In this document: in pieces, positions 5,267-64,000 of the stretch
How positions within the stretch are numbered: the stretch's first letter is position 1
Layout: every line of letters starts with the position of its first letter
From: Gemmatimonadaceae bacterium
GTDB lineage: Bacteria; Gemmatimonadota; Gemmatimonadetes; Gemmatimonadales; Gemmatimonadaceae
Direction: 5' to 3'
Assembly: GCA_020846935.1 (NCBI GenBank)
Contig: JADLCY010000008.1
Span: forward strand, 124,001-188,000
Length of the DNA stretch: 64,000 nt
Made by a program: the position numbers and the translations under genes
The notes under the pieces: model-generated
The model's database searches: none
Seen by the model: only the letters and a program-made list of their open reading frames with translations
What the model was told of the DNA's origin: nothing

Positions 5267-6208
5267 ATGCGCGTTGCTCGAATGGCCGTTGCGTGCCTGC
5301 TTTCGCTCGCTGTCCCCTTTGACATGACTGCCCAGCAGGCGCCCGGTTTGCGGCTGGTGATCGAGACGGAGCGACCGAGTGTCGCCCTCGGCGAACCGGT
5401 CTACCTCACGGCGCGTGTCCGTAACGAAGGCTCGGCGGCGGCACGCCTCATTCCGCTGCTTCAACCATCGGATGGCCTGCTCGTCATCTCGATGTCGGGG
5501 CCGCGCGGTGAGCGCCTTGGCTTCGTGCCGCTCGGCGTCCGCGACAGCGAGACACCGCCGTCGGACCTGGCGCCCGGTGCACAGGTCGCCACGTCGTTCC
5601 CGGTGTTCTTTGGTGCGTCGGGCTGGACCATGCGAACTCCCGGGACGTACACCCTCCGAGCGCGCTTCACGGTGCATGACGGCCAGGGCGCGCCACGGGA
5701 GCTGCGTTCGGACTCGCTGACGATCCGCGTCGGTGACCAGCCGGCGGAGCTCGCAACGGCGCTGCTCACCACCAGTGCCGCGTCAGAACAGGCCGGCAAG
5801 TTTCTCACCTGGTCGGGTGGCGACCACCTCGGCGCCGGGCAGGAGTTGCTGGCCTCACTGGTGACGCGCTTCCCGGGCGCCGCGCTCATCGATCACTATC
5901 GGCTCGCGCTGGGCCGCAGCCTGGGTCGGCCCTTCAAGGACTACACACGGAGCGCGGTTCGACCGGCCGACCCCGCGCGATCGGTCGCCGCGCTCGAGCA
6001 GGTGCGGGACAGCGTGGTCCCGGCCGTCCTGCGCATCCAGAAGTACCTTGGCCTGGCCACCGGGTATCGCGCGCTCGGTCGATCACCCGATGCGACCCGC
6101 GCGCTGACCGCGGCGAGGGCGTTGGCGGGCGAACGCGCCGAGCTTGCCGAGTTCAGGGAAGCGATCGATCGCGCCGGACGACCGCAGGGCGGAGCGACGA
6201 CGCGTTAG
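5267..6208 (+). CDS. Exported protein with Ig-like N-terminal domain
   Basis: A 313-residue exported protein. ATG 5267 is preferred to an in-frame GTG at 5249 because GTAGGGGG lies seven bases upstream and the GTG overlaps the preceding gene. After the signal peptide (cleavage near DMTAQ), residues of about 25-160 look like a beta-sandwich of the type found in proteinase-inhibitor-like or carbohydrate-binding proteins (RPSVALGEPVYLTARVRNEG). The C-terminal half is helical and TPR-like (GQELLASLVTRFPGAALIDH). It directly follows the metzincin-like protease and could modulate it, but that is only a context inference. I do not recognise a named family. Confidence 0.6.
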   Translation: MRVARMAVACLLSLAVPFDMTAQQAPGLRLVIETERPSVALGEPVYLTARVRNEGSAAARLIPLLQPSDGLLVISMSGPRGERLGFVPLGVRDSETPPSDLAPGAQVATSFPVFFGASGWTMRTPGTYTLRARFTVHDGQGAPRELRSDSLTIRVGDQPAELATALLTTSAASEQAGKFLTWSGGDHLGAGQELLASLVTRFPGAALIDHYRLALGRSLGRPFKDYTRSAVRPADPARSVAALEQVRDSVVPAVLRIQKYLGLATGYRALGRSPDATRALTAARALAGERAELAEFREAIDRAGRPQGGATTR

Positions 6209-6250
6209 GCAGACCTTGCCCCGTGAGCGGGGCGACGGAGAGATTGTGTG

Positions 6251-7570
6251 ATGCGATTCTCTCCGTTGGTTGCCTTTGCCTGCGCCGCCCTGGCGTGCGA
6301 TGGCGCGCCGCCTCGCGCCGAGGGCGCGCCAAGAGCGCCGGCCACGGCGGAGAGCGCACGCCCGGTGCCGCCGACGCCACCGGAAACACCGACACCACCG
6401 GCGCGCACACCGCGACCCGACAGCGTGCGCGCGCTGTACGTGAATGCGTGGGCCGCGGGATCGCGGGGTCGGATGCAGGAACTCATCCGCCTCGCCGATG
6501 CCAGCGAGATCAACGCGTTCATCATCGACGTGAAGGAGTCGGATACCTATCTCGCCTACACCGGGACGAAGATTGCCCTTGCCCGGGAGATCGGCGCCGA
6601 CCGGCGACCCGCGACCACGTGGCTCCCGTCGCTCATCGATACGCTGCGCGCGCACGGCATCTACTCCGTCGCCCGCATCGTGGTGTTCAAGGATCGGATG
6701 CTCGCCGAGCGCAAGCCGGAGCTGGCCATCCGCCACGAGAACGGCTCCGTGTGGCGAGACAACAAGGGCGGAGCGTGGGTCAACCCGTACGACCGACGGG
6801 TCTGGGACTACAACATCGCCATCGCCCGCGAAGCGCTCGCCATGGGCTTCAGCGAGCTGCAGTGGGACTATGTCCGCTTTCCCGACGTGACTGATCGCAT
6901 GCGGGCCGTCATGCGCTTCCCGGGCAGCAACGACGTGAGTCGCGCAGACAACATTGGCGCCTTCATCACCTACTCCAAACAGCAGCTGCGGGAGTTCGAC
7001 GTGCCGGTCACCGCCGACGTGTTTGGCCTCGTCACGCACGTCGAGGACGACGTGGGGATCGGCCAGAACTGGGAGAAGGTGATCGCCGCCGCCGACGTCG
7101 TCCTGCCGATGGTGTACCCGTCGCACTACTACGCCGGGCTGTATGGCTTCAAGCGACCCATCGCGAACCCGTACGAGATCGTGCGACTCGCCTCGACGGA
7201 TGCCGTCGAACGCTCGGCGTTCGTGCGCGACTCGATGAAGCAACCGGTGGGCGAGGTGATGCCCTGGCTCGAGGCGATGAGCATCCGTGGCGCCAGTTTT
7301 GGGCCCGCGGAGGTCCGCGCCCAGATCCAGGCCGTGTACGACGCCGGCCTGAGGAGCTGGGCCCTGTGGAATCCGGGATCGAAGTACGGCGTCTACGCCG
7401 ACGCTCTGCGTCCGGCTTTGGGCGGACCGTCGCCCGTCGAGCGACGTGGGTGGACCGCACCACGCTGGGACGTGCCGCGCGAACGACTCAGCCGAGTCAT
7501 CGTGAGGCGTGACCGCGCGGCCCGCGCCGCGGCCCCCGCAGACAGCAGCACCCGATCGCGAGCGCCGTAA
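6251..7570 (+). CDS. Putative glycoside hydrolase, DUF4015 family
   Basis: A 439-residue lipoprotein or exported protein (FACAALAC near the N-terminus, then a proline/threonine-rich linker to about residue 55). The barrel matches the DUF4015 putative glycoside-hydrolase family: INAFIIDVKESD, RIVVFKDRMLAERKPELAI, a WVNPYDRRVWDYN segment and ELQWDYVRFPD. These segments contain the acidic strand-end residues typical of GH13/GH-like TIM barrels. Polysaccharide processing at the cell surface is inferred. ATG 6251 is chosen over the adjacent GTG 6248, with GGAGAG upstream. The last 40 or so residues are Arg/Ala-rich and not part of the barrel. Confidence 0.75.
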   Translation: MRFSPLVAFACAALACDGAPPRAEGAPRAPATAESARPVPPTPPETPTPPARTPRPDSVRALYVNAWAAGSRGRMQELIRLADASEINAFIIDVKESDTYLAYTGTKIALAREIGADRRPATTWLPSLIDTLRAHGIYSVARIVVFKDRMLAERKPELAIRHENGSVWRDNKGGAWVNPYDRRVWDYNIAIAREALAMGFSELQWDYVRFPDVTDRMRAVMRFPGSNDVSRADNIGAFITYSKQQLREFDVPVTADVFGLVTHVEDDVGIGQNWEKVIAAADVVLPMVYPSHYYAGLYGFKRPIANPYEIVRLASTDAVERSAFVRDSMKQPVGEVMPWLEAMSIRGASFGPAEVRAQIQAVYDAGLRSWALWNPGSKYGVYADALRPALGGPSPVERRGWTAPRWDVPRERLSRVIVRRDRAARAAAPADSSTRSRAP

Positions 7571-58019: not shown

Positions 58020-60314
58020 ATGCCATTCGTGCCAGCGCGGCGTTTTGCCGCGCGTCTCGCCGTTTCAATCGGCGCGGTCACCGCACTTGCCGCGATCGCC
58101 CATGCGACTCCCGCGCGCGTGCCCGACACGCCGCCGATCGTTGGAGTCGTCCGCGATAGCGCCGGAACGCCCCTCCCCAACGTACAGGTCGTGGTCACCG
58201 GGCTCGATCGAAGCACATCGACCAACCACCAGGGGATGTTTCTCTTTCGGGGCCTTCCTCCCGGCCGCTATCACCTCACCACGTTGTTCCTCGGCTTTGC
58301 GCCGGGGCACGCCGACGTCGTCGTGCCGGCCGCGGGCGACACCGTGCGCGTCACGATCGTCGTGCACCCCACCGTGCTCACGTTGGGCGGCATCCAGGTC
58401 ACGGCGACGCCCGTGGGCACCGATCCGCGCAACGTGACGCAATCGGCGACGGAGGTCTCGGGCCAGGCGCTGGCCCGGGCGATGGCGCCGACGATCGCGC
58501 AGACGCTCGCGCGCGAACCGGGTGTGTCGATGCGCTTCAACGGCCCGGCCGCCACTGCGCCGGTCATTCGCGGGCTGCAGGGCGAGCGCATTCTCGTGCT
58601 GCAGGACGGCAACCGGGCGGGCGATCTCTCGTCGTCCGCGCCGGATCACGGCGTATCGGTCGATCCGCTCACCGCGCAGCGTATCGAGGTCGTGCGCGGC
58701 CCCGCTTCACTGCTCTATGGCAACAGCGCGTTGGGGGGCGTGGTGAACGTGATCTCCAATGACATCCCGTCCACCATTCCGTTGCACGTCGACGGATATG
58801 TCGGCACGCAGCTCGAATCGGTGACGCCGGGCGGCGGGGTGTCCGGGGGCGTTCAGGTGCCGATCACGAGTGGGCTCGCGCTGGTGGGCCGCGGCGGCAT
58901 TCGACGCGCCGAAGACCTTCGCCAGGGCGGACGTGAGCGACTGGGGAACTCGTACTACCGCAATGCGTACGGCACGGGCGGGCTCGCGCTCGCGGGCTCG
59001 AAGGCGAACGGCGGTGTGGTGTATCGCCGCTACGGCTTCGACTACGGATTGCCGTCGGCCGATGGAGACGGCGCGCACATCGAAGGCACGCGCCACGAGC
59101 TGGTGGGTCGCGCGGAGTTGGCCGCACCGGCGGGGGTCGTGCAATCGCTGCGGGCGAGCGGCACGGCGCAGTGGTACTCGCATGACGAGGTGGCGCGCAC
59201 GGGAACGGTGAACACACGCTTCAACCTTCGCACACAGACGGGAGATGTCCTGGTGCGGACGCTCGTTGGCGCGGTCAACGGCGCGCTGGGTGTGTCCGGA
59301 CTGTTCAGGCAGTATGAGCCCACGGGCGATGAAGCACTGACACCGCCGGTCAACAGCACCGGCGTGGGAGCGTTCTTCTACGAGGAAGTCCCCCTCGCAT
59401 CGCTCACCCACCCCGACGATCGGGTTGCGCGCCTGCAGTTCGGCGGGCGCTATGACAGCTACCGCATCACCTCGAGCGGCTCCGGCAGTCCCAAGTTCGG
59501 GCCAGGGGTGCATCGTGACTTTCGCGCGGCCTCGGGGTCGGTCGGTCTCAGCGTACCGGTGACGGAGCGCATGAGCCTTGCCGTGAGTGCTGCACGTGCG
59601 TTTCGCGCACCGTCGGTGGAGGAGTTGTTCTCCAATGCGTTCCACGAGGCCGCGGGAACCTTCGACCGTGGCAACGTGGCGCTGGAAGAGGAGGTCAACA
59701 CCGGCGTGGAAGGGATCCTGCGGTTCCACACGCGGCGCATCAACGGGCAGCTCTCTGCGTTTGGCAGCCGCATTGCGAACTACATCTCGCCCAACATCGT
59801 GAAGGACACGCTGATCTCGGGCGAGGCAGGGCCCGAACGTGTTCCACTCAATCGCTTCTCGCAGGGCGACGCCGTGCTGCGCGGGCTCGAGGGGCAGATC
59901 GAGATGGAGGTGGTGAGGCACCTGGTCGTTGGCGCGATGGGGGATCTCGTGCGCGGCGAGCTCAGGGCGGCACGTGAGCCGCTGCCGTTCATGCCGCCGG
60001 CCCGGCTCGGCGGCACCGCGCGATGGGACAACGGGCGGTGGGCGTTTGGCGGCGACCTGCGGCACGGCTTCTCGCAGCGACGCGTGCCCGTGTCGGCGAG
60101 CGACTCGGATCCGTCGGGCCGCACGACCGACGCGTTCACGCTCGTGAACGTGAGCGCAGGGCTCACGCTGCCCCTTGGGCATCGGGTGCATGCGTTCACG
60201 GTGCGCGTCGACAACGTGGGCGACGTGCGCTACCGCGATGCCACGAGTCGCATCAAGACCTTTGCGCTCAATCCCGGTCGCAACGTCTCACTGGGGTATC
60301 GCGTGCTGTTCTGA
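58020..60314 (+). CDS. TonB-dependent receptor with carboxypeptidase-regulatory domain
   Basis: A 764-residue outer-membrane receptor. A signal peptide (to AHATPAR) is followed by a carboxypeptidase-regulatory-like domain (SAGTPLPNVQVVVTGLDRST, FRGLPPGRYHLTTLFLGFAP), a plug with PVIRGLQGERILVLQDGNRA and EVVRGPASLLYGNSALGGVV, and a 22-strand barrel ending in the terminal aromatic LGYRVLF. It imports a siderophore, metal or saccharide using TonB energy; the ligand cannot be read. The small Cys protein upstream hints at a metal. Confidence 0.93.
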   Translation: MPFVPARRFAARLAVSIGAVTALAAIAHATPARVPDTPPIVGVVRDSAGTPLPNVQVVVTGLDRSTSTNHQGMFLFRGLPPGRYHLTTLFLGFAPGHADVVVPAAGDTVRVTIVVHPTVLTLGGIQVTATPVGTDPRNVTQSATEVSGQALARAMAPTIAQTLAREPGVSMRFNGPAATAPVIRGLQGERILVLQDGNRAGDLSSSAPDHGVSVDPLTAQRIEVVRGPASLLYGNSALGGVVNVISNDIPSTIPLHVDGYVGTQLESVTPGGGVSGGVQVPITSGLALVGRGGIRRAEDLRQGGRERLGNSYYRNAYGTGGLALAGSKANGGVVYRRYGFDYGLPSADGDGAHIEGTRHELVGRAELAAPAGVVQSLRASGTAQWYSHDEVARTGTVNTRFNLRTQTGDVLVRTLVGAVNGALGVSGLFRQYEPTGDEALTPPVNSTGVGAFFYEEVPLASLTHPDDRVARLQFGGRYDSYRITSSGSGSPKFGPGVHRDFRAASGSVGLSVPVTERMSLAVSAARAFRAPSVEELFSNAFHEAAGTFDRGNVALEEEVNTGVEGILRFHTRRINGQLSAFGSRIANYISPNIVKDTLISGEAGPERVPLNRFSQGDAVLRGLEGQIEMEVVRHLVVGAMGDLVRGELRAAREPLPFMPPARLGGTARWDNGRWAFGGDLRHGFSQRRVPVSASDSDPSGRTTDAFTLVNVSAGLTLPLGHRVHAFTVRVDNVGDVRYRDATSRIKTFALNPGRNVSLGYRVLF

Positions 60315-60377: not shown

Positions 60378-61847
60378 TCAGCCGCCGGTCGCTGGCGGGT
60401 CGGCGGCAGTGCCAGGTGCGGCTCGACTCGTCAGGCGCTTGACCTGTGCCGTGGCCACCTCGTCGTCAAAGGCGTCGGCCGCCTGGTTGGTGGGCTCCAG
60501 GCTGTCGCCGCTTCCGCGCACGCCGGCCTGCCGAGTCGCATCGAGTTGCGCGAGAACGAGGGACTGCACGTCACCGAGCGTGGCGTCCAACCCGACTGTT
60601 CCGAGTCGGTAGGCGTCGGGATCTGATTCGAAGGCAATACGGGCCGCACTGACCAGAACCCGCACGTCCGCCGATGGCAAGGGGAACCGCGAGCGCAGCG
60701 CATCCTTGCTCACGGTGGCGGCGTCCTTCCAGGCATTCGGCGTTCCGGCGGCGACGGCAGCAAGGGTCTGACCGCCAAAGGCATCGAACGCTGTCGAGAG
60801 CCAGGCGGCGGCGACCCGGCCGCAGTCATCGGTGAAGGACGCCATCGGTGTCGCCCCTGCCAGAAGTGTGTCGCGCCGACCGCGCATCTCCTTTGCGCCT
60901 TCCGTGTCGCCGAGCTGGTGCAGCGTCGCGGCGACGAGCTCGGCACGTAGTGCGGTGCCAGGGTAGCCGCCGGTGGCACCCACACCCGGCGACTCGCGGC
61001 GTACCCTTTCGACATCGAGGGTCACGAAATCGAGCAGCGCGTACCCGAACGCACGGCCACCGCTCAGCGCGCCGTAGACATCGGCGAACGCCTCACCGAG
61101 CCAGCCCTGCCAGGCCAGCGCGCGATCGCCCGGAATGCCATGGAGATCAATCACCTGCTCGAGGGACTCCTGCAGCGCAGATGTGAGGTCGAGATCGTCC
61201 TCGACGACGTGCCCGGCCTCATGAGCGAGTATCAACACATCCGGCAGGTGCGAGAGCTGGGACCACGGCAACCCGAGGACGGCGATCGGCAGGGTCTTCA
61301 TCTCTCGCACGAACGCCTGTCGTTCGGTCTCGCCCGACGACACGGATTCCGCCATGAGATCCGCGCCGCGCGTTGCGGCAAATGGCGACCAGTCGCTGTT
61401 GAGGTAGCAGAGCGGCGGTTCCCGCACCGACGCTGCGGTCCGGTGCTTCGCCTCAACGGCCGCGCGCAGCGCTGGTGCGATGCACGCCCACGCGTAGTCA
61501 TCGGCCGCATCCAGAAAGCGTTTCATGCCGGGCTGCAGGCGCTGCGCGAGCTTGCTGCGATGAAACTCCCACATCGCATGCAGCAGCAACACGTCACGCT
61601 CCAGCGCGTGACCGAGGGCCATGTTCTTCTCGCTCCGTGTGCTCATGGCCGTCACCTCCTCGGCCAGCGCGGTGCGAAGCCGATCCAGCCGCCTGACGAG
61701 TCGGCGCACCTGCGTGTGATGCTTCTCGAACGCCTGGCCCGCCCTGCTCAGCGCCGTCCATTGTGCGAAGTCGAGTGTGAGCGCATCGAGCTTGTCGACA
61801 AGGGCCGCGCGGCGGCGCGCCACCATGCCATCCAGCGCGCTGGTCAT
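60378..61847 (-). CDS. HExxH zinc metalloprotease
   Basis: A 489-residue soluble protein, ATG 61847, no signal peptide. A helical front (about 1-130, REM/coiled-coil-like with KKHHTQVRRL-type charge) precedes the active site HEAGH (209-213) in LILAHEAGHVVEDDLD. Thirty-nine residues later, WLGEAFADVYGALSGG gives a Glu ligand (E252), the gluzincin-type arrangement HExxH...E. C-terminal helices follow. It is coupled by an ATGA overlap to the CHAT-like gene upstream, implying a joint function, probably proteolysis triggered by that partner. The family is not named. Confidence 0.75.
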   Translation of the reverse strand: MTSALDGMVARRRAALVDKLDALTLDFAQWTALSRAGQAFEKHHTQVRRLVRRLDRLRTALAEEVTAMSTRSEKNMALGHALERDVLLLHAMWEFHRSKLAQRLQPGMKRFLDAADDYAWACIAPALRAAVEAKHRTAASVREPPLCYLNSDWSPFAATRGADLMAESVSSGETERQAFVREMKTLPIAVLGLPWSQLSHLPDVLILAHEAGHVVEDDLDLTSALQESLEQVIDLHGIPGDRALAWQGWLGEAFADVYGALSGGRAFGYALLDFVTLDVERVRRESPGVGATGGYPGTALRAELVAATLHQLGDTEGAKEMRGRRDTLLAGATPMASFTDDCGRVAAAWLSTAFDAFGGQTLAAVAAGTPNAWKDAATVSKDALRSRFPLPSADVRVLVSAARIAFESDPDAYRLGTVGLDATLGDVQSLVLAQLDATRQAGVRGSGDSLEPTNQAADAFDDEVATAQVKRLTSRAAPGTAADPPATGG

Positions 61848-64000
61848 GACGCGGTCGGTACCCGGGGGCGCACGAAGAGCGTGTGCGCCGGCATCGTCGC
61901 ATACACCACGCAGACATCCGACGGCGAGGTACGGAGCAGCTTCACGAGGTCGGTCGACTGTCGGCGTTCGCGCCCGGCCGCGGAGCGCAGACGCCGAAGC
62001 AGGTCGAGCACCGAGAGTCGGTCCTTCCACGCCTCGGCCATCGCGGCATAGGCTGCCGGCACGCGATCGGTGGTCGGTACTTCGAAGCCCACGGCAATGA
62101 TGGCGGCGCACGCGCCAATGCGGAACAGTTCGTGCGCGAACACGTTGCGCAGCAGCAACTGGCGCGCGACTTCGGTGTGCGATGTCGCAGGCATCGGGTC
62201 GAGCACGACGATGGGCCGATAAACGGGCGGCAACAGCTTGAGCGCCGAGCCCAGGGTGGAGGGAGACTCACCGGGTCCGTCGGGTCCGTCCTTCTCACCG
62301 CCGCCGGAGAAGCGCATCACGACGCCGCCCAGCGATGTCGACTCGTCGAAGGTTCCGCACAGGTGGAGTACGACGGGTCGACGGGCCTGCAGCGACGCGA
62401 CCAGGTTGCGCCCCGGGGACTCCAGGCGCAGCCCGGCGGCGCGATACAGCGCCGTGACGTCAAAGTGCTCCTTGAAGGACGTGCCGGCACGCATGCCTCG
62501 ACGAGCCCCCTCCTGCGCACCGGCCACCAGAGCCACGGCGTCGCGACGATCGCGCACGAGCCCTTCGCTCAACAGCTGCACCGTGCGGCGATCGAGGAGG
62601 CTCGTTGGCGGCAGGCCCCTGGCAGTCTGGAACGCTGCCAGCGCGCGTTGTCCCTGTGGTCCCCAGATGCCGTCGGCCACAACGCGAATGCCATTTTCGA
62701 CCAGCGACTCCTGGATCCATCGGACCAGCTCACGGGGATTGAGCGCACCGCGGTAGACAGCGCGGGTCTCCTGCGCCGCCTGCAGTGGTATGTCGCCGTT
62801 GCCGCCGGCGGGAAGCAGCTCGACCGGCAGCGCGGCCACGGTCGGCGGATCGAGTACCAGCCTGAGCTCCGGCGCCTCCAGGTGCTGCAGATGGTGTCCG
62901 AGCTCGGGGCGCGACATCAGGGCACCGGCCAACTCGGCCGCGAACGCGGGCCAGTCGTCGGCCACGCGCCTGACGAGAGCGAACGGAACCACTTCATCAT
63001 CACGGCCAAGCCCGAGCAGCTCGGTCGCCGGCCCGATGAGGGGCGCGGTGGGCGGCACGATCGTCACCCCGTCCCGTTGCACCTCGACGACGAGTCCGTC
63101 GCGCCAATACGTAAGCAGGGTCAGTTGCGGGCTCGCGGCATCGGGCCCTGGCGTCGCTGTCGGCCGGCCAGCCGGAACAGGCGTCGAAGCCGGAGGCGTG
63201 GAGGGTTTCGGCGGTTTGCCGTGGGCGGGCGGTGGCCCCACGGGTACCGTCAGGCGCGAGGCGGCGTCGTTGAGCCGCGGCTGACCTAACGACTCGAGCG
63301 TGCGATCGGCACGGGCGAGGTGTTCCTGCCATCCGGCGGTGTCGCCGCGGGCGCGAGCCGCCGCGGCCGCTATGGTGTGTGCGATCGCGGCCCAGCGCGT
63401 CATGGGATAGGCGTCACCCCCGAGGTCGGCCACCGCCTCATCGGCGCGTTCGGTCGCCGTCGTCAGATCGCCAACACGCAGGGCCAGCTCGGCGAGGGCC
63501 AGCGCCACACGGCCGTTCGCCGTATTCGTGGCGTCCTCGCGGCGACGGAAGCGATCGCCCCAGGGCGCGCCGTTCATCGATTGGCCGGCGCCGACGAGCC
63601 GACGCGCCAGCTCCAGGGCTGGCGCGGCCAGTGGCTGCACGGTGAGTCGCGGGAGCAATTGCTCCAGGTGGCCGGCGGCCTTCGACGGTCGACCCAGGAG
63701 CCACTCGACCGTCGCCATGGCGAGGCGGGTGTGCTCCGCGTCGCCGGCATCGTCGGGCAGTACCGGTTCATCGAGTCCCACCACGGACGCGATCTCGTGC
63801 GCGGCATCGCCGGAGAGCCGAAGCGGACGATCCAACAGATGCGCCAGCGTGGCGAGTACGTCGAGCCGAGCCGCCAGCGGTGTGACCGCTGCGAGATCCC
63901 GCGAGAATTGCATGACCGTCGCTGGGTCGGGCTGCTCGGTCGCATCGAGCAGCGCGCCAAGGACATGCAGCCGGAGCACCCGCCACCGTCGTACGGCGAC
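61844..64000 (-). CDS. CHAT-like protein with peptidoglycan-binding-like insert, 5' partial
   Basis: At least 718 codons; the frame is open to the window edge, so the start is outside. Visible order (counting from the GTG at 63979): a TPR-like helical region to about 245, a Pro-rich linker, then a CHAT/caspase-like segment from about 285 (ELRLVLDPPTVAALPVELLP) interrupted by a PG_binding_1-like domain at about 415-472 (LVRWIQESLVENGIRVVADG, IWGPQGQRALAAFQTARGLP). CHAT resumes with AVALVAGAQEGARRG and RPVVLHLCGTFDES and ends LFRIGACAAIIAVGFEVP. In active CHAT the motif is H-x-x-G-H-G and the Cys follows a LVVLNAC strand; here LHLCGTF and VVLDPMPA replace them, so the dyad seems lost. It is coupled to the HExxH protease. 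Confidence 0.6.
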   Translation of the reverse strand, partial: VAVRRWRVLRLHVLGALLDATEQPDPATVMQFSRDLAAVTPLAARLDVLATLAHLLDRPLRLSGDAAHEIASVVGLDEPVLPDDAGDAEHTRLAMATVEWLLGRPSKAAGHLEQLLPRLTVQPLAAPALELARRLVGAGQSMNGAPWGDRFRRREDATNTANGRVALALAELALRVGDLTTATERADEAVADLGGDAYPMTRWAAIAHTIAAAAARARGDTAGWQEHLARADRTLESLGQPRLNDAASRLTVPVGPPPAHGKPPKPSTPPASTPVPAGRPTATPGPDAASPQLTLLTYWRDGLVVEVQRDGVTIVPPTAPLIGPATELLGLGRDDEVVPFALVRRVADDWPAFAAELAGALMSRPELGHHLQHLEAPELRLVLDPPTVAALPVELLPAGGNGDIPLQAAQETRAVYRGALNPRELVRWIQESLVENGIRVVADGIWGPQGQRALAAFQTARGLPPTSLLDRRTVQLLSEGLVRDRRDAVALVAGAQEGARRGMRAGTSFKEHFDVTALYRAAGLRLESPGRNLVASLQARRPVVLHLCGTFDESTSLGGVVMRFSGGGEKDGPDGPGESPSTLGSALKLLPPVYRPIVVLDPMPATSHTEVARQLLLRNVFAHELFRIGACAAIIAVGFEVPTTDRVPAAYAAMAEAWKDRLSVLDLLRRLRSAAGRERRQSTDLVKLLRTSPSDVCVVYATMPAHTLFVRPRVPTAS

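What the first reader, a model, noticed from the sequence alone, without database searches (positions are those of the whole stretch)
60378..64000. CHAT-like pseudo-protease with peptidoglycan-binding insert coupled to an HExxH protease
TPR-like, CHAT-like and PG_binding_1-like modules occur in one protein whose CHAT catalytic His and Cys positions look replaced (LHLCGTF, VVLDPMPA), and an ATGA overlap joins it to a gluzincin-type zinc protease. An inactive CHAT sensor partnered with an active protease would be a new arrangement, resembling bacterial conflict or regulated-proteolysis systems.
Basis: partly seen in the sequence, partly recalled or inferred. Interest (0 to 1): 0.75.

Follow-up and report, generated by a model that had tools for sequence, protein, structure and literature searches.

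The report
NLR-like protease operon with dead CHAT
The two genes are the tail of a bacterial operon, probably for controlled cell death or defence, in which a sensor protein carries a dead copy of a caspase-like protease beside a living copy and a new family of zinc protease; a sister operon starts with a gasdermin, the pore-forming protein of pyroptosis.

Summary
The window's last gene carries a divergent CHAT domain that has lost both catalytic residues and holds a PG_binding_1 insert. It overlaps by ATGA a gluzincin-type (HExxH...ExxxD) protease. Fetching the missing 5' end shows an 1,818-aa STAND ATPase-TPR-pseudoCHAT protein. It is coupled by a second ATGA overlap to an intact CHAT protease with its own C-terminal ATPase; a second intact CHAT gene lies upstream. 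The core order (CHAT-ATPase, STAND-TPR-pseudoCHAT, metalloprotease) recurs in another genus of the same family and on a Sinorhizobium plasmid. In the former the operon begins with a bacterial gasdermin (PADLOC bGSDM, E = 2.6e-40). The metalloprotease family has no Pfam or NCBIfam model. In all five loci found beside CHAT genes it accompanies one intact and one degenerate CHAT, and the lost residues differ. The PG insert is absent from the Sinorhizobium protein, so it is dispensable. Best reading: a NLR/gasdermin-like proteolytic cell-death operon, analogous gene by gene to CARD-NLR/LypABC systems. The pseudoCHAT probably acts as a docking or allosteric partner of the live CHAT. Defence function, pairing and targets are inferred; both AlphaFold runs failed. 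New variant of a known kind.

The parts
60378..61847 (-). Gluzincin-type zinc metalloprotease gene (489 aa), last gene of the operon; no Pfam or NCBIfam family
   Evidence: ATG 61847 in an ATGA overlap, TGA at 60378; homologues in 4 other CHAT loci; no convincing Pfam/NCBIfam match
61209..61223 (-). HEAGH zinc-binding motif
   Evidence: invariant H, E, H in 8 divergent homologues; position checked
61080..61094 (-). ExxxD helix with the third zinc ligand Glu (E252) and D256
   Evidence: invariant E and D in 8 homologues, with flanking invariant W, W and a later P...R; positions
61844..61847 (-). ATGA stop/start overlap between the STAND-pseudoCHAT gene and the metalloprotease gene
   Evidence: the same kind of overlap in Sinorhizobium (13992/13995), 3-base gap in G118
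61844..64000 (-). 3' part of the STAND-TPR-pseudoCHAT gene; the full gene runs to about window position 67300 (G000:C8:185844-191300), 1818 aa
   Evidence: L002 1844-7300; ATGA overlap with the upstream CHAT-ATPase gene at L002 7297-7300
61847..62956 (-). pseudoCHAT domain (PG insert included)
   Evidence: hhalign to intact CHATs, score 40.7 versus null maximum 17.9; LPVELL strand at 62813-62830
62348..62365 (-). HLCGTF: first motif His kept, catalytic His replaced by Thr
   Evidence: alignments; position
62186..62203 (-). LDPMPA: catalytic Cys position replaced by Met
   Evidence: alignments; position
62123..62164 (-). RQLLLRNVFAHELF, the most conserved stretch of the pseudoCHAT (candidate interaction surface)
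   Evidence: R..LLRN.FA..LF invariant in three genomes of two phyla; position
62570..62734 (-). PG_binding_1 insert inside the pseudoCHAT
   Evidence: Pfam E = 3.6e-8; present in G118, absent in Sinorhizobium

Best explanation
The two genes are the 3' half of an inflammasome-like proteolytic switch. The STAND ATPase-TPR-pseudoCHAT protein is the NLR-like sensor and switch. Its TPR stretch probably recognises a trigger (phage or damage) and its ATPase allows assembly. Its catalytically dead CHAT docks on, and holds or activates, the live CHAT of the neighbouring CHAT-ATPase protein, as cFLIP does with caspase-8. The live CHAT, together with the zinc metalloprotease as second protease, then cleaves and fires an effector: a gasdermin in the sister operon, probably the upstream second CHAT protease or an unlinked protein in the window genome. 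The outcome is cell death or arrest. Shown: operon anatomy, its conservation, loss of both catalytic residues, intact dyads in the partners, the gasdermin in the sister operon. Inferred: sensing, docking, order of cleavage, target, defence role.
For: Operon with two ATGA overlaps. The same three-gene order is found in G118 and on a Sinorhizobium plasmid. In G118 the first gene is a bGSDM (258 aa, E = 2.6e-40, 7 bases before the CHAT-ATPase gene). All five CHAT-linked metalloprotease loci pair one intact with one degenerate CHAT, with different residues at His/Cys: T/M, P/P, A/T, Q/C, H/G. Among about 32 other CHATs of the family none lost Cys and 3 of one subclade lost His. Walker A is intact in CHAT-ATPase and STAND proteins. 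No signal peptide or membrane segment in the window-genome proteins by hydropathy. Patchy distribution: 2 of 179 genomes of the family, none of the 4 congeners; plasmid-borne in rhizobia. Effector-like neighbours in other loci: alpha/beta hydrolase, patatin, phospholipase D. Analogous three-gene core in LypABC/CARD-NLR systems (protease with C-terminal ATPase; ATPase-TPR NLR-like protein; second protease), where the gasdermin may be replaced (PMC13236601).
Against: No gasdermin in the window genome, so its effector is unknown. No defence island was seen around the window locus; the neighbours are a lantibiotic cluster, a kinase and a TonB-receptor-like gene. No PADLOC model matches the window metalloprotease or STAND protein. 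AlphaFold models were useless (pLDDT 36-38), so neither the pseudoCHAT fold nor a heterodimer is shown. Only three genomes carry the full core. The Verrucomicrobia and Bradyrhizobium loci differ in architecture.
Confidence: 0.6

Rival explanations
1. Same machinery, but not defence: a developmental or programmed-lysis switch, such as release of gene transfer agents or self-lysis, as LypABC does in Caulobacter.
For: LypABC has the same three-part logic, lacks a gasdermin, lies outside defence islands and controls lysis (PMC13236601). The window locus likewise lacks a gasdermin and defence neighbours.
Against: Patchy presence (2 of 179 family genomes) and plasmid carriage fit accessory defence better than development; the sister operon has its own gasdermin.
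Confidence: 0.2
2. A cell-wall damage sensor: the PG_binding_1 insert binds muropeptides or murein precursors and gates the proteases.
For: Significant PG_binding_1 insert in both the window and the G118 protein. A different gasdermin of the phylum sits beside an amidase with PG_binding_1.
Against: The insert is missing in the Sinorhizobium homologue. No export signal or membrane segment in the window proteins. Small PG_binding_1 folds can also serve as protein-binding modules (general knowledge).
Confidence: 0.1
3. The zinc protease is the terminal effector that degrades a host or phage protein, as Lit does with EF-Tu, and the CHATs only activate it.
For: Conserved gene with intact gluzincin motif in every locus. 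bGSDM operons are reported to contain a Peptidase U49-type gene (PMC9612521). The Sinorhizobium member matches PADLOC peptidase_U41, E = 4.4e-11.
Against: G118 already has a gasdermin effector. No Pfam match to U49/Lit. The peptidase_U41 model also gives weak short hits in many other genomes.
Confidence: 0.2
4. The C-terminal domain is not CHAT-derived; the likeness is chance.
For: No single-sequence hit to Pfam CHAT; single-sequence scores against a CHAT profile are only marginal (10-19 of about 800 shuffles reach them).
Against: Profile-profile score 40.7 against a null maximum of 17.9; collinear motifs including the PWEL-like strand and the first His.
Confidence: 0.05

Closest known systems
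CARD-NLR anti-phage systems (Lysobacter gasdermin operon; Caulobacter LypABC)
   Same: Protease with C-terminal ATPase, NLR-like ATPase-TPR protein, second protease; gasdermin optional; rare and patchy (PMC13236601)
   Different: CHAT instead of trypsin; zinc protease instead of the second trypsin; no CARD recognised; the NLR-like protein ends in a dead CHAT; Walker A intact in the protease-linked ATPase, lost in LypA
Bacterial gasdermin operons with caspase-like/CHAT proteases
   Same: G118 operon starts with a bGSDM next to an intact CHAT; another genome of the family has a TPR-CHAT followed by a bGSDM
   Different: Window operon has no gasdermin; a dead CHAT on a STAND ATPase is not described in the papers I could read
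Craspase TPR-CHAT (Csx29)
   Same: TPR and CHAT in one chain, allosterically controlled protease (PMC9729208)
   Different: Csx29 is catalytically active and RNA-guided; here the TPR-linked CHAT is dead and fused to a STAND ATPase
iSTAND/VMAP ternary conflict systems
   Same: NTPase-gated proteolytic systems with inactive enzyme domains, including inactive caspases (PMC7159879)
   Different: No MoxR-vWA couple; STAND here has an intact P-loop; the inactive domain is CHAT on the NTPase itself
cFLIP with caspase-8 (animals)
   Same: Dead protease homologue beside a live one, proposed regulator (general knowledge)
   Different: No common descent of the arrangement implied; heterodimer here untested

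Membership tests
CHAT protease (PF12770) | sequence match to the family | tested here: inconclusive
   no Pfam hit for the window domain, but profile-profile homology far above null
CHAT protease (PF12770) | His-Cys catalytic dyad | tested here: not met
   T/M in the window, P/P in G118, A/T in Sinorhizobium; so a pseudoprotease, not an active CHAT protease
Gluzincin metallopeptidase | HExxH plus downstream Glu ligand (ExxxD) | tested here: met
   invariant in 8 divergent homologues
Gluzincin metallopeptidase | thermolysin-like fold, bound zinc, activity | not testable with these tools
   AlphaFold pLDDT 38; no PDB relative by sequence
Peptidase U49 (Lit) / PADLOC peptidase_U41 | match to the family model | tested here: inconclusive
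   Sinorhizobium member matches PADLOC peptidase_U41 at 4.4e-11, the other 7 members not; no Pfam U49 hit
STAND NTPase | P-loop, Walker B, GxP-type motif, C-terminal repeats | tested here: met
   GGxGK[ST]MF, hhhD-T-E and P-x-x-L-A motifs conserved in three proteins; weak AAA_16/NPHP3_N Pfam hits below cut-off
Bacterial gasdermin system | bGSDM gene in the operon | tested here: not met
   none in the window genome; met in the G118 sister operon
CARD-NLR system | CARD on the protease and NLR-like partner | not tested
   CARDs need structure comparison; the N-terminus of the window CHAT-ATPase looks basic then beta-rich by eye
CARD-NLR system | anti-phage or lysis function | not testable with these tools
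   needs experiment

The most novel reading that the evidence does not exclude
A recurrent bacterial counterpart of the cFLIP/caspase-8 principle: a NLR-like STAND ATPase carries a catalytically dead CHAT whose job is to pair with the live CHAT-ATPase, and an undescribed gluzincin family acts as obligate third protease, together forming a CHAT-based inflammasome that fires gasdermins or other membrane-attacking effectors. The dead/live pairing has arisen more than once.
Probability: 0.35. Interest if true: 0.85.

Novelty: new variant of a known kind. Interest (0 to 1): 0.62.

Why it matters
Bacterial gasdermin and NLR-like operons are models for the origin of pyroptosis. Dead protease homologues that control live ones are well known in animals, but I found no described bacterial case on a NLR-like ATPase. 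The loci here give a small, ordered set of genes in which that idea, and the role of a zinc protease as second protease, can be tested directly by point mutants and pull-downs. They also give profile seeds for an unmodelled protease family and an unmodelled pseudoCHAT family, which current defence-finding libraries (PADLOC 2.0.0, NCBIfam 20) miss for the window proteins.

Tried and rejected
CATASP Pfam match of the window part (E = 0.0042, below cut-off) vanished with the full protein: rejected. Literature search for CATRA with CHAT and TPR found nothing. First genome-contig scan with the single protease found nothing; the alignment found the Verrucomicrobia locus. Viral contigs: no relatives; the wide alignment could not be scanned. 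Phages: none. A first CHAT profile contained three wrong-strand sequences and is superseded. An automatic motif read-out misread some CHATs and was corrected by hand. Full text of Johnson 2022 and Wein 2025 was not held. The meaning of the NCBIfam name 'anti-phage protein ProA', matched by part of the Verrucomicrobia protein (E = 3.2e-49), could not be traced.
Full report
What is there. The finding covers the end of one gene and all of another, both on the minus strand. The second gene begins inside the stop codon of the first (ATGA at 61844-61847) and ends at 60378. The window is G000:C8:124001-188000 of a 4.5-Mb genome, and the missing 5' end could be fetched (L002 position x equals window position 60000 + x). 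The first gene is 1,818 aa and itself begins in an ATGA overlap (L002 7297-7300) with an upstream gene for a 705-aa protein. That upstream protein has an intact CHAT domain (Pfam E = 5.9e-23) and a C-terminal AAA_16 ATPase (E = 4.6e-9). About 105 bases further upstream a second protein with an intact CHAT ends (Pfam CHAT E = 1.9e-17, Peptidase_C25 E = 1.2e-6). A gene for a trypsin-like protease runs divergently (E = 1.1e-24). The window genome has five CHAT regions in all.

The long protein. The order is: an uncharacterised N-terminus, a STAND-type ATPase (GGxGK[ST]MF, hhhD-T-E and P-x-x-L-A motifs conserved in three homologues), a long repeat-like region with only weak TPR matches, and a C-terminal domain that Pfam does not recognise except for a PG_binding_1 insert (E = 1e-7; 2.3e-11 in the relative). 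Is the C-terminus a CHAT? With the insert removed, a three-sequence profile aligned with a profile of ten intact CHATs scores 40.7 in hhalign over 159 columns, P = 4.4e-5. Two hundred column-shuffled versions reach at most 17.9, and a TPR-region control gives P = 0.61. Single sequences score only marginally, so this is a strongly diverged CHAT. At the dyad positions the window protein has T and M, the G118 protein P and P, and the Sinorhizobium protein A and T. The only invariant His in the domain is the non-catalytic first one, and no Cys is invariant. A block R..LLRN.FA..LF is invariant instead. The PG insert is absent in Sinorhizobium, so it is not essential to the design; and hydropathy shows no signal peptide or membrane segment in the window proteins.

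The protease. The 489-aa product has no Pfam, NCBIfam or PDB relative of any significance. Eight divergent homologues keep HExxH, then W, W, E-x-x-x-D, and later P...R, the gluzincin signature. I did not manage to model the fold.

Who else has it. Homologues were found in G118 (another genus of the same family), a Verrucomicrobia metagenome genome, and plasmids of Sinorhizobium terangae and Bradyrhizobium quebecense, all beside CHAT genes. More distant ones in Paraburkholderia, G406 and G500 are not seen beside CHAT genes. The full three-gene core (CHAT-ATPase, STAND-TPR-pseudoCHAT, metalloprotease) is present in G000, G118 and Sinorhizobium in the same order, mostly with ATGA overlaps or gaps of a few bases. 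In Verrucomicrobia the neighbours are an intact CHAT-STAND protein and a second protein with a CHAT in which His is replaced by Gln. In Bradyrhizobium there is one intact CHAT and one with Cys replaced by Gly. So each of the five loci has one live and one dead CHAT, and the lost residues differ from locus to locus. As a base rate, among about 32 other CHATs of the same bacterial family none lacked the Cys, and three, from one subclade, had His replaced by Tyr. Five loci are few, and they were found by the protease, not sampled at random.

The gasdermin. In G118 the operon starts with a 258-aa protein that matches PADLOC's bacterial gasdermin model over its length (E = 2.6e-40). It ends 7 bases before the CHAT-ATPase start. 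Only four of 395 genomes of the phylum have a gasdermin; another, G158, has one directly after a TPR-CHAT gene. The window genome has none, and there the second CHAT gene stands upstream instead. The other loci have alpha/beta hydrolase, patatin or phospholipase D genes nearby. These neighbours suggest, but do not prove, membrane-attacking effectors.

How it probably works. In CARD-NLR systems the three-part core is a protease with a C-terminal ATPase, a NLR-like ATPase-TPR protein, and a second protease; the gasdermin can be absent or replaced; in Caulobacter the core (LypABC) controls lysis (PMC13236601). Bacterial gasdermins are activated by neighbouring caspase-like proteases, and some operons contain CHAT or a 'Peptidase U49' gene (PMC9612521; PMC9729208). 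The operon here matches part by part with CHAT and a zinc protease in the protease seats. I infer that the STAND protein is the sensor and switch, that its dead CHAT docks on the live CHAT, and that the metalloprotease is the second protease. The docking step is the least secure: it rests on recurrence of dead/live pairs and on the conserved block.

Distribution. Two of 179 genomes of the family and none of four congeners carry the protease. Five Sinorhizobium meliloti megaplasmids keep only the first 191 residues of the CHAT-ATPase, as expected for an accessory system that is gained and lost.

Verdict. It is a new variant of a known kind of system (NLR/gasdermin-like proteolytic operons), with two features I did not find described: a dead CHAT on a NLR-like ATPase beside a live CHAT, and an unmodelled gluzincin as the recurring third protein. 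I could not read the two founding gasdermin papers in full, so prior mention of such operons in their supplements is possible.

Noticed in passing
L006 9032-9808 (G118:C15): Bacterial gasdermin heading the sister operon, PADLOC bGSDM E = 2.6e-40.
   Followed up: yes
L039 2699-6058 and about 6054-6725 (G158): TPR-CHAT gene with intact dyad directly followed by a gasdermin, in the same bacterial family.
   Followed up: partly
L038 6187-6969 and 7377-8318 (G197): Gasdermin followed by an Amidase_2 protein with a PG_binding_1 domain, a holin-endolysin-like pairing.
   Followed up: partly
L042, L044, L050: A TPR-CHAT subclade in which the catalytic His is Tyr (H-x-A-T-Y-G) while Cys is kept.
   Followed up: no
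H12-H16, Sinorhizobium meliloti megaplasmids: Only the first 191 residues of the CHAT-ATPase remain at 71% identity, apparently a decayed copy of the system.
   Followed up: no
L009 231-995 and 1000-2316; L014 11577-15038: Distant homologues of the metalloprotease follow acidic repeat proteins (EYEYE, HELHE) in two unrelated bacteria, a second conserved setting.
   Followed up: no
L010 2631-4775: Verrucomicrobia protein with degenerate CHAT at the N-terminus and a region matching NCBIfam 'anti-phage protein ProA' (E = 3.2e-49).
   Followed up: partly
L003 1-16900 (G000:C8:203001-219900): Lantibiotic-type cluster (LanM-like synthetase, C39-peptidase ABC exporters) near the operon.
   Followed up: no
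L002 15622-16857: Protein kinase with a C-terminal BRCT-like domain (BRCT match just below Pfam's cut-off), an unusual fusion.
   Followed up: no
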